Shown piece by piece: positions 12,444-58,197 of a stretch of 64,000 nucleotides of DNA. The position numbers and the translations under genes were made by a program. The notes under the pieces were generated by a model, which was given only the letters and a program-made list of their open reading frames with translations, was not told where the DNA came from and made no database searches. How positions within the stretch are numbered: position 1 is the first letter of the stretch; each line of letters opens with the position of its first letter. This stretch comes from Janthinobacterium sp. CG3 (GTDB lineage Bacteria > Pseudomonadota > Gammaproteobacteria > Burkholderiales > Burkholderiaceae_D): NCBI RefSeq assembly GCF_000344615.1, contig NZ_KB467824.1, positions 5,281,125-5,345,124 on the forward strand, written 5' to 3'.

Positions 12444-13133
12444 ATGCCGCGCCGCGCCCGCCTCGTTTTGCCAAACGTTCCCTTGCATCTGATTCAACGT
12501 GGAAATAACAGGCAAGCGTGTTTTTTTGCCGATGCCGATTACCGCGTCTATCTGGCGTGGCTGGCCGAACACGCCGACGCGAACGGTTGTCGCGTACATG
12601 CCTATGTATTGATGAGTAATCACGTGCATTTGTTGATTTCCGTAGACGAGGCGGGATCGCCTGGTGCGCTGATGAAGGCCCTGGGTCAGCAATATGTGCA
12701 GTACGTCAACCGCCGCTACGGACGCAGCGGAACGCTGTGGGAAGGGCGTTTCCGCTCCTGCCTGATACAGCAGGAAATGTATCTATTGATATGCCAGCGC
12801 TATATTGAACTCAATCCCGTGCGCGCGGGTATGGTGCAGGAACCGGCCCAGTACCAATGGTCCAGCTATCGCGGCAACGCCGAAGGATGCGCCGACCCGA
12901 TTTTGCGTCCCCATCCCCTGTATAGCGGCATGGCTGAGGATGCCGGCGAAAGGCAGCGGGTCTATCGTTCACTGTTTGATGATGCGCTGGCGCCGGAGCG
13001 CGTCAATGCCTTGCGCAAGGCGACAAACGGCAACTTCGCGCTCGGCGACCTGGCATTCACCGAACAGGCCGCCGCGGCGCTGGGCAGAAGGGTGGTGCCG
13101 GATACGCCAGGGCGGCCGCCAAAAACAAAGTAA
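12444..13133 (+). CDS. RAYT (REP-associated tyrosine transposase, Y1/IS200-like)
   Basis: The 229-residue protein belongs to the TnpA_REP group of HUH single-strand transposases. The metal-binding HUH motif is H60-V-H62 in MSNHVHLLI, and the likely catalytic tyrosine is Y120 in RYIELNPVRAGM. RAYTs are normally single-copy, vertically kept genes that bind and cut REP hairpins. Here the gene is bracketed by two palindromes, and its TAA stop directly touches the right-hand one. GGAGGA precedes the ATG at 12444. It sits between greB and spoT, and its spacing suggests insertion into an ancestral greB-spoT neighbourhood. Confidence 0.95.
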   Translation: MPRRARLVLPNVPLHLIQRGNNRQACFFADADYRVYLAWLAEHADANGCRVHAYVLMSNHVHLLISVDEAGSPGALMKALGQQYVQYVNRRYGRSGTLWEGRFRSCLIQQEMYLLICQRYIELNPVRAGMVQEPAQYQWSSYRGNAEGCADPILRPHPLYSGMAEDAGERQRVYRSLFDDALAPERVNALRKATNGNFALGDLAFTEQAAAALGRRVVPDTPGRPPKTK

Positions 13134-56364: not shown

Positions 56365-56467
56365 GTAGGTCGGGTTGGCGGAGCGTAGTGCGGCAGTGTT
56401 GGCCAAAGCGGAACGCGCCGCTCCAGGCCAACGTTGTCGGCTTACGCCCGATGGGCTAACCCGACCT
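56365..56467. repeat. Intergenic palindrome interrupted by the IS1111 element
   Basis: AGGTCGGGTT (56367-56376) pairs with AACCCGACCT (56458-56467). The right arm stops exactly where the insertion element is inferred to begin, and the expected next bases (ACAAAACCTG, as in the copy at 50433) are found after the element near 58185. Confidence 0.7.
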
Positions 56468-56520
56468 TCTATGATGAATTCCAAGTCAACTGGTTTTTCG
56501 CAAATTTATCCTATCCCTTG

Positions 56521-56591
56521 TTTCGGTATCGGCGGGGTCAAGGGCGGGCGAAGCCCGGCGAAGCGAACCCTTGACGCCGCCGATACCGAAA
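56521..56591. repeat. Long palindrome within the noncoding end of the IS1111 element
   Basis: Arms of 24 bases (56521-56544 and 56568-56591) match with one mismatch, and the centre holds a second small hairpin (CGGGCGAAGCCCG). It lies just inside the left subterminal repeat. It may be part of the element or an older REP-like repeat captured by it. Confidence 0.8.
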
Positions 56592-56947
56592 TATGCTGGT
56601 CCATGGCGCCATGACGCATATTGCGGCTTGGCGCCATGCCGACCTGTTTCGTTTTGGCCTTCGTTCATTGCCAGCGCTTTGCTTTCGTCGTTCGTACAGC
56701 CCAGTTCGAAGCTCTCGGTCATCATTGCGTGAGACTTCACGTCCCACCACCTTCTATCCGCTGGTTTTGCTACCCCAGCCTAATTCTGCATGCGCGTTGC
56801 GCTTAGTGACCTTGATGCGTGCAAGCCCCATCTACTAGGGTCGGTTGCCATGGGCAACCAGGTCGGGTTACGGGCCTGCCTACTCCTTGCTGCTGCGTAG
56901 TTCAACGTAATGCCAACTGCTGGTACTGAACGTGCCGCCTTACTCCC
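56592..56947 (-). ncRNA. Candidate guide (bridge/seek) RNA region of the IS1111 element
   Basis: This is the noncoding stretch downstream of the transposase stop and inside the element. In the IS1111 group the guide RNA that pairs with target and donor DNA is encoded on this side. A clear hairpin GGTTGCCCATGGCAACC is present near 56847-56863, and no reading frame is convincing. Exact RNA ends and guide loops cannot be set by eye. Confidence 0.4.
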
Positions 56948-58100
56948 TTATGCCGCTCGTTTCAACTGCGCCCCTTCGGGGACGATCCCATGCTCCAGGT
57001 AGCGCCACAGGGCGACCACCAGCTTGCGCGCCACCGCGACGATGGCGATGCGCTTGCCGCGCTTGTTCTGGCCTCCCTGCGTGCGCCGGGCGAACCATTT
57101 CGTCATCACGCTGTCGGGTTGGTAGCGCAGCCAGAACCAAGACATCTCGATCAACAGCGCGCGCACGCGCCGGTTGCCCTGCTTGCTGATGCCCTGGTCA
57201 ACCCGGCTCTCGCCGCTGTCGTAGGGCTGCGGCACCAAACCGACGCAGGCGCCCACCTGCCTGCGGTTCTCGAATTTGCGCCAGAACAGCTCCAGCACCA
57301 ACCTCGTCGCGCCCACCGGCCCCACCGCCTTCAACCGTTCCAGGTCGGCAATGCGCTGGCGCACCTCCGGCGGCAATTGCTCCGCCATCCCTTTTTCCAG
57401 CGCGGCCAGTTGTTGCTGCGCCAACTCCAAACGTTTGCACTCCTGTTCCAGCCGCTGCTGCAGCTGCGCCGACAGCGGATCGCCGTCGTAGCAACACAAT
57501 TCCCGCTTGTTCAGCCGCGCGCCCCACATCGCCGCCGACGCCATCCCAGCAGCCGACGGTGCGCAGCAGCTTGCGGATCCGGTCGCGGTGCTGCTGCGTT
57601 TCCTTTTGCAACTCGCCGCGGTCCCGTACCACGTGCCGCTGCGCCTCGGCCTCCACCGTCGGAACACGGATCACGTGCATCCGGTCGTACTCGCCACGCA
57701 ACCAGCCCCGCAATGTCAGCACCAGCTTGATCGCGTCGAGCCGGTCGGTCTTGGCCCGCCGTTTGTGCCGCTCGACGGGAATGCTGGCAGGGTCGCAGAT
57801 CACCACCTCGTAGCCCAGCTTCGAGAGGGCGCGTTCAATCCAGAAGCCATCCTGACCAGCCTCGTACAGCACGACGGTGCGTACCTCGGCGGCCAGGCCC
57901 CACTTTGCCTTGAACTTCTCAATCTCCTGCACCGTTTCGTTGAGGCGCCCCGCCGCTGTCTCGCCGGAAACCGTCTGAATCGCCGGCTTCTCTCTCTTTC
58001 CGTCGTGCAAGGCAATTTTCCAGCTCTTGCTCGACAACTCTAATGCCACTGCAAAAACTTCGACTTCAGGCGTAAAATCGTTGGCGCGGGTCGGTTGCAT
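56948..58100 (-). pseudogene. IS1111/IS110-family transposase, frameshifted
   Basis: The N-terminal half (from the ATG at 58100) carries the DEDD-type RuvC-like domain: FAVALELSSKSWKIAL, then VLYEAGQDGFWIERAL and KTDRLDAIKL. The C-terminal half (to 56948, in another frame) carries the Transposase_20-like domain with LKAVGPVGATRLVLELFW and GNRRVRALLIEMSW, which includes the likely catalytic serine region. The two frames join near 57530-57545, after GCWDGVGGD. Together they give the normal length of about 384 codons, so a one- or two-base indel has broken the gene, unless a programmed frameshift or a sequence error is involved. Confidence 0.88.
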
Positions 58101-58197
58101 GATTTTCTCCTAAGTTGATTCTTCGAACCTTCACTTTAGGATTAATTTGCGTCTTTTGCCGACCCGCCTTCATTCATAGTATCTACAAAACCTGGCG

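What the first reader, a model, noticed from the sequence alone, without database searches (positions are those of the whole stretch)
56592..56947. Noncoding end of the IS1111 element as a candidate guide RNA
About 430 bases after the transposase stop carry no plausible gene but have hairpins, including GGTTGCCCATGGCAACC. IS110-family elements make a bridge RNA, and the IS1111 group encodes its RNA downstream of the transposase. Loops complementary to the GTAGGTCGG-type repeat would make this a repeat-homing guide RNA.
Basis: inference. Interest (0 to 1): 0.6.

Follow-up and report, generated by a model that had tools for sequence, protein, structure and literature searches.

The report
Guide RNA of a repeat-targeting insertion sequence
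The stretch after this jumping gene's enzyme appears to encode a small folded guide RNA whose loops spell out where the element inserts (a short palindromic repeat scattered through the genome), because related elements with different guide letters sit in matching, different places.

Summary
The element (56468-58182, minus strand) is an IS110-superfamily insertion sequence with IS1111-type layout. Its downstream noncoding end is 481 nt (56467-56947), longer than the range given. A conserved RNA lies at 56717-56884 (minus): a target loop, then a donor loop. The target loop has an 11-nt guide (56860-56870) complementary to the right half of its insertion site and a 4-nt left guide (56832-56835). 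In this genome 13 of 13 left ends follow GTAG and 11 of 11 right ends precede AGGTCGGGTTAG: the GTAG foot of a REP. A covariance model finds the RNA beside relatives' transposases; guides and flanks change together (0 of 100,000 permutations reach the observed match, right or left guide); the structure covaries. Transcription, binding and transposition are inferred from published seekRNA/bridge-RNA work; nothing here is experimental. The kind is known, but this clade differs: glutamate replaces the first catalytic aspartate in 28 of 28 transposases aligned, and long variable hairpins often lie between RNA and right end. The window copy's transposase is frameshifted; copies with an open frame exist.

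The parts
56468..58182 (-). insertion sequence, without its core dinucleotide
   Evidence: ends by comparison of own-genome copies
56948..58100 (-). IS110-type transposase, frameshifted in this copy (two overlapping frames)
   Evidence: PF01548 37.2 bits, cut-off 29; PF02371 56.6 bits, cut-off 21.3; open frame of 383 codons in L002-L008
56717..56884 (-). predicted guide (bridge/seek) RNA, part covered by model R1
   Evidence: (162.5 bits for the window; the window is one of the 8 sequences the model was built from), covariation
56860..56870 (-). right-target guide UAACCCGACCU, complementary to AGGTCGGGTTA
   Evidence: co-variation with right flank in relatives
56832..56835 (-). left-target guide GUAG, same letters as the left flank
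56821..56879 (-). target loop with its closing stem (56872-56879 with 56821-56828)
   Evidence: stem with two-sided changes in 6 of 8 pairs, helix 3
56783..56787 (-). right-donor guide AGAAU facing the left end ATACT (one mismatch here)
56751..56757 (-). left-donor guide AUAGAAG, same letters as the right end plus core
   Evidence: alignment
56466..56467 (-). core AG at the right junction
58183..58184 (-). core AG at the left junction (end of GTAG, 58183-58186)
56456..56465 (-). right half of the target REP, GTCGGGTTAG
56365..56376 (+). foot of the inverted partner REP, not occupied
56521..56591 (-). long hairpin between RNA and right end
56602..56638 (-). second hairpin between RNA and right end

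Best explanation
The noncoding 3' end encodes a guide RNA of the bridge/seekRNA type that homes the element to REPs. Shown here from sequence: element ends, shared AG core, REP target, a conserved covarying RNA, and target guides that change together with the flanks. Inferred by analogy with ISEc11, ISPa11 and IS621: the excised element forms a circle whose joined ends make a promoter; transcription runs through the transposase gene into the RNA; the RNA binds the transposase; its target loop pairs with both strands of the GTAG foot and 5' arm of a REP (right guide about 8+2 nt, left guide about 2+2 nt counting the core); its donor loop pairs with the joined ends; strand exchange at AG inserts the element in one orientation.
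For: Own genome: 13 of 13 left ends after GTAG, 11 of 11 right ends before AGGTCGGGTTAG. 71 exact repeats split 33 GGG and 38 GGA (counted, recounted), yet 11 of 11 occupied ones are GGG, as the guide asks (0.0002 by chance). Relatives: 20 of 28 distinct guide-flank pairs share 7 or more contiguous bases beyond the core; 0 of 100,000 permutations reach the sum, also with one row per distinct guide (n 24). The best match of a flank in its own RNA lies in the right-guide loop in 24 of 28, against 77 of 748 for other elements' flanks. Left guide: 2 or more bases next to the core agree in 24 of 28 distinct pairs; 0 of 100,000 permutations. Structure: 91.7% of cells paired, 24 of 32 pairs changed on both sides, at most 40.7% paired in slid controls. 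Guide order as published for IS1111 (PMC11187229). Transposase named RNA-guided IS110 family by NCBIfam NF033542, 192.3 bits, cut-off 140.
Against: No transcript, binding or transposition data. 8 of 28 pairs have fewer than 7 contiguous matches (L029, L031, L033, L078, L081, L070 first copy, L071, L075); for the first L070 copy the right flank does not fit at all. Left guide and left flank agree in 0 bases beyond the core in L051 and L058 and in 1 in L073 and the second L021 element. The right-donor guide is mismatched in this element, in L021 and in L080, and exactly so in all 12 own copies that hold the RNA. Permutations do not remove relatedness among elements. The pair counts were made on an alignment fitted to the model.
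Confidence: 0.93

Rival explanations
1. The 11-nt match is a leftover of REP sequence captured by the element, and the transposase protein itself recognises REP hairpins.
For: REPs are common here (200 sites at up to one mismatch), and REP targeting by transposases without a known RNA has been described for other families (PMC1525189, passages).
Against: The same loop matches quite different, also non-REP-like, flanks in relatives, at a fixed place of a covarying structure.
Confidence: 0.03
2. The RNA is mainly a regulator of transposase expression, as proposed for the small RNAs of ISPpu9.
For: ISPpu9 is a REP-inserting IS110-type element whose two small RNAs were shown to affect transposase expression (PMC8450116, passages).
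Against: Does not explain why the loop letters follow the insertion sites. A second, regulatory role is not excluded.
Confidence: 0.03
3. Two guides and target are real, but there is no donor loop: the sub-terminal repeats are bound by protein and the second stem-loop only folds or binds the transposase.
For: The right-donor guide is mismatched in this element in all 12 own copies with the RNA; the short seekRNA of ISEc11 without the rest was sufficient for transposition (PMC11187229, Discussion).
Against: The variable base of the right-donor guide is complementary to the left end in 18 of 21 lineages (hand-made table; 1 of 100,000 permutations as good); the left-donor guide equals the right end and both hardly vary.
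Confidence: 0.2

Closest known systems
IS1111-group seekRNAs (ISEc11, ISPa11, ISKpn4, ISPst6; PMC11187229)
   Same: Noncoding end downstream of the transposase; top-strand complement 5' of bottom-strand match; ISPa11 also sits in a REP; natural change of guide with target (abstract, introduction, Results parts 1-2, sections 13-14).
   Different: Transposase 383 codons against 330-350 aa given there; Glu instead of the first Asp; sub-terminal repeats imperfect; extra long hairpins before the right end; right guide about 10 nt.
IS621 bridge RNA (PMC11208160, PMC11208158)
   Same: Target loop and donor loop, both containing the core dinucleotide; REP target (IS621 in E. coli REPs, cited in PMC1525189). 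Passages only.
   Different: IS621 RNA lies upstream, with a nine-base left guide and a four-base right guide. Here the RNA is downstream and the long guide is the right one; in both cases the long guide is the 5' one.
ISPpu9, ISPpu10 and other IS110-type elements in REPs (PMC1525189, PMC8450116)
   Same: All copies at one position of a REP; for ISPpu9 an AG on both sides (passages).
   Different: Other host and repeat; the ISPpu9 RNAs were described as regulators of transposase expression.

Membership tests
IS110 superfamily (RNA-guided transposases) | Curated family model of the transposase | tested here: met
   NF033542 192.3 bits, cut-off 140, for the intact copy L002; Pfam PF01548 and PF02371 over cut-off for the window's two fragments
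IS110 superfamily (RNA-guided transposases) | DEDD tetrad in the RuvC-like domain | tested here: not met
   Three of four acids kept in 28 of 28 aligned; the first is Glu in 28 of 28. Equivalence with IS621 D11 rests on alignment and on a low-confidence model
IS110 superfamily (RNA-guided transposases) | Serine of the SG motif in the C-terminal domain | tested here: met
   GL-P----SG in L002; Ser in 27 of 28, Ala in 1; aligned with SG of IS621 and ISCro4
IS1111 group | Long noncoding region downstream of the transposase | tested here: met
   481 nt downstream, 82 nt upstream of the start codon
IS1111 group | Sub-terminal inverted repeats, usually 11-13 bp, near perfect | tested here: inconclusive
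   CTATGAATGAA against CTATGATGAA: needs a one-base gap; by eye
IS1111 group | Transposase of 330-350 aa | tested here: not met
   383 codons in L002-L008
IS1111-type seekRNA | Top-strand complement 5' of bottom-strand match, both overlapping at the core | tested here: met
IS1111-type seekRNA | RNA made, bound by the transposase and needed for movement | not testable with these tools
   needs RNA sequencing and transposition assays
bridge RNA | Donor loop pairing with both element ends | tested here: inconclusive
   left-donor guide fits; right-donor base fits in 18 of 21 lineages but not in this element
REP (GTAG-tagged palindromic repeat) as target | High-copy palindromic unit with GTAG at one end | tested here: met
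   200 sites at up to one mismatch, control 0; occupied units read GTAG, GTCGGGTTA and mostly its inverted complement further on; GTAG tag as in PMC3733652 (passages)

The most novel reading that the evidence does not exclude
This element belongs to a separate lineage of RNA-guided recombinases, spread over Alpha-, Beta- and Gammaproteobacteria, in which the first catalytic aspartate is a glutamate (E-E-D-D), the 5' guide is long (about 10 nt) whichever half of the target it serves, and a fast-changing hairpin module sits between guide RNA and right end, perhaps setting the RNA's 3' end or shielding it from read-through.
Probability: 0.35. Interest if true: 0.6.

Novelty: new variant of a known kind. 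Interest (0 to 1): 0.42.

Why it matters
It offers a set of naturally different guide-target pairs (24 distinct right guides among the 33 matches scored), from which pairing rules can be read without experiments, and shows how an element can multiply by homing to a repeat. If the glutamate variant is active, it tests how strict the composite active site is, since changing D11 abolished IS621 recombination (PMC11208158, passages).

Tried and rejected
Rfam: no family at gathering score in the window; at E up to 1 over 56440-56960 only three microRNA models on the palindrome near 56521-56591, far below their cut-offs; rejected as palindrome matches.

Spread: own genus 1 of 40 genomes, the own one only (DNA search); family 8 of 392; order 1 of 399, own only. 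Relatives in Cupriavidus exist, so the order scan, with its stricter filters and sampled genomes, is no measure of spread.

Is the long hairpin private to this element? A pattern for its core hits 8 of 294 family genomes. Of nine loci from it tested with R1 only L095 (G306) holds the RNA. L091 and L097 (G075) are contig ends carrying a related right end; L088, L090, L092, L093, L094 and L098 are other contexts. In one plasmid it stands beside an ISL3 transposase gene. Function left open. A plain terminator seems unlikely: no T-run follows on the sense strand (by eye).

Structure: AlphaFold model of the L023 relative (six rows) has pLDDT 60.0 and pTM 0.34, too weak for a fold claim. ISCro4 (Z 8.2) and IS621 (Z 7.9) appear among unrelated rows of equal Z; only the residue offset at the first strand is used, as weak support. 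PDB sequence and profile searches match only the C-terminal domain of these two at significance.

Papers: searches for hairpins in IS1111 elements and for a glutamate variant listed no paper whose title or shown abstract describes either; bodies were read only as cited, and most subscription papers are not held, so I do not claim that neither is in print.

Rows dropped before counts: 8 of 41 model matches (L030, L032, L074 and the second L080 match have no exact CATAGAA downstream; L054, L055, L059 and the chance L031 match have no target loop). L030 and L032 have a right end with one change and flanks AGGGTAGAAAGG and, after two extra bases, AGGGTGG. The fixed-register score is low for several rows whose alignment register is off by one; the register-free score is quoted. 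In one search the right-donor pattern took a wrong stretch for the second L021 element and none for L076; both were entered by hand. Proteins of 300 or fewer residues (L022, L050, L072 pieces) were left out. Pattern search was mistyped and tells nothing.

Full report
What is there. The IS110-type transposase lies on the minus strand, 58100 to 56948, in two overlapping frames. A search of the own genome with the region lists 29 matches, nine of them nearly full length (L001-L009). Lining up the copies gives 13 left ends, all reading GTAG|ATACTATG, and 11 right ends, all reading CATAGA|AGGTCGGGTTAG; L008 and L010 have no such right end. The uninterrupted repeat reads CGTAGGTCGG(G/A)TTAGC, so the two junctions share an AG and the element is 56468-58182. 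The noncoding 3' end is 481 nt, against 356 in the given range.

The target. The repeat occurs 200 times at up to one mismatch; the reversed control gives 0. The unit, GTAG then GTCGGGTTA and, in most, its inverted complement, looks like a REP of the GTAG-tagged kind (tag from PMC3733652, passages), usually with an inverted partner further on. The genome has four Y1 transposase (PF01797) matches over the cut-off, candidates for REP-associated transposases, one of them in this window. The element splits the REP at its GTAG foot. The 71 exact repeats divide into 33 GGG and 38 GGA (listed, counted by hand, recounted); 11 of 11 occupied ones are GGG, as the guide's C asks (0.0002 by chance). The two kinds of REP may differ in other ways, so this only supports.

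The RNA. On the minus strand the 11 bases 56870-56860 are the exact complement of AGGTCGGGTTA; 1 of 5,000 dinucleotide shuffles of the end reaches 11. Further on a second stem-loop carries AGAAU and AUAGAAG, facing the element's own ends. This is the anatomy of a bridge RNA (PMC11208160, passages) with the target guides in IS1111 order (PMC11187229).

Relatives. One scan of named genomes gave 14 loci, in Cupriavidus and Massilia cavernae. A model made from the window and seven of these sequences found the RNA in 8 of 392 family genomes. With 16 plasmid regions fetched, out of 260 matching records, it gives 41 matches at E up to 1 in 38 sources. On that alignment (32 distinct rows) 91.7% of cells pair, 24 of 32 pairs change on both sides, and slid versions reach at most 40.7%. 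The alignment was fitted to the model, which leans the counts towards it; the slid controls answer that only in part. Of six more distant plasmid relatives (about 39-40% identical) four have a match at E up to 0.01 downstream of the transposase and two (L104, L105) have none.

Guides follow targets. In 28 distinct guide-flank pairs, 20 share at least seven contiguous bases beyond the core, for example C. necator GCAGCCTGCT with AGCAGGCTGC and C. lacunae GCACACCACT with AGTGGTGTGC. No permutation of 100,000 reaches the observed sum, also with one row per distinct guide. A flank's best match in its own RNA lies in the guide loop in 24 of 28, against 77 of 748 for foreign flanks. The left guide agrees with the left flank in two or more bases next to the core in 24 of 28 distinct pairs; no permutation of 100,000 does as well. 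The eight weak right-guide pairs include three M. cavernae copies, which sit in variant REPs where a G-T wobble could restore one pair, and the first L070 copy, whose flank does not fit.

Donor side. The left-donor guide is nearly fixed, as is the right end. The variable base of the right-donor guide is complementary to the left end in 18 of 21 lineages (tabulated by hand), but not in this element, L021 or L080. The mismatch is the same in all 12 own copies that hold the RNA, so that base cannot be strictly needed, or the pairing is read wrongly.

Expression. The joined ends would read TTGACT, 17 nt, GATACT, and in M. cavernae TTGACA, 17 nt, GATACT (by eye). A promoter at the junction is described for ISEc11. 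Not tested here.

What differs. In 28 transposases aligned (this one and 27 relatives, about 38 to 77% identical) the residue at the place of IS621 D11 is Glu; the other three acids are kept in 28 of 28 and the serine in 27 of 28. Another IS110 transposase of the same genome (L107) has the usual Asp, in GLDWA. The structure comparison starts with model residue 14 on IS621 and ISCro4 residue 4, which would put Glu21 on residue 11 if no gap lies between; an HIV integrase row (14 on 57) and the Aquifex Argonaute rows (11 on 492) would put it on the catalytic Asp as I recall them (D64, D502), while RSV integrase and Marinitoga Argonaute rows come out one residue off. The model is poor, so this is weak. 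The seekRNA study used only proteins with the DEDD motif for its tree (passage), so such a clade may be missing there; I could not check its tables.

Hairpins. Of 27 distinct RNA-to-right-end stretches, 15 are longer than 190 nt and 14 of these hold at least one stem scored 12 or more; 0 of the 12 shorter ones do. Their outer arms differ in sequence between elements yet stay complementary within each. A similar hairpin core stands in other contexts. Function unknown; my guess is processing or shielding of the RNA.

Verdict. A guide RNA that homes the element to REPs is by far the best reading, and the mechanism is of a known kind. The transposase variant and the hairpin module are what a specialist might follow up.

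Noticed in passing
L002:1597-2745 residue 21 and 27 relatives: Glutamate at the place of the first catalytic aspartate in 28 of 28 transposases aligned, from Alpha-, Beta- and Gammaproteobacteria.
   Followed up: partly
window 56521-56591 and 56602-56638; relatives: Long hairpins between RNA and right end; arms differ between elements but stay complementary within each. Present in 14 of 15 long and 0 of 12 short right ends.
   Followed up: partly
L088, L090, L092, L093, L094, L098; L100:2501-2540: A similar hairpin core (GTCAAGGG...CCCTTGAC) outside these elements, in L100 beside an ISL3 transposase gene.
   Followed up: partly
window 12477-12809 (+): Y1 transposase domain (PF01797, 54 bits), a candidate REP-associated transposase; one of four matches in the genome.
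   Followed up: no
L027:3640-3930: Copy in Cupriavidus sp. IDO that lacks most of the RNA but keeps the transposase frame and right end: it would depend on an RNA from elsewhere.
   Followed up: no
L009 (G000:C1:4920869-4922653): Own-genome copy 96% identical with many scattered single-base insertions, unlike the other nearly identical copies; decay or assembly error.
   Followed up: no
L008 right end (G000:C1 near 4784615): Right end lacks CATAGA and instead carries a piece resembling the reverse complement of the target loop; next to it a short 89% match to the RNA on the other strand.
   Followed up: no
L021, L023-L026, L028 right flanks: Cupriavidus relatives sit at CTAG-CAGGCTGCTG; the sequence beyond looks to me like the end of another insertion sequence (inference, no annotation checked).
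   Followed up: no
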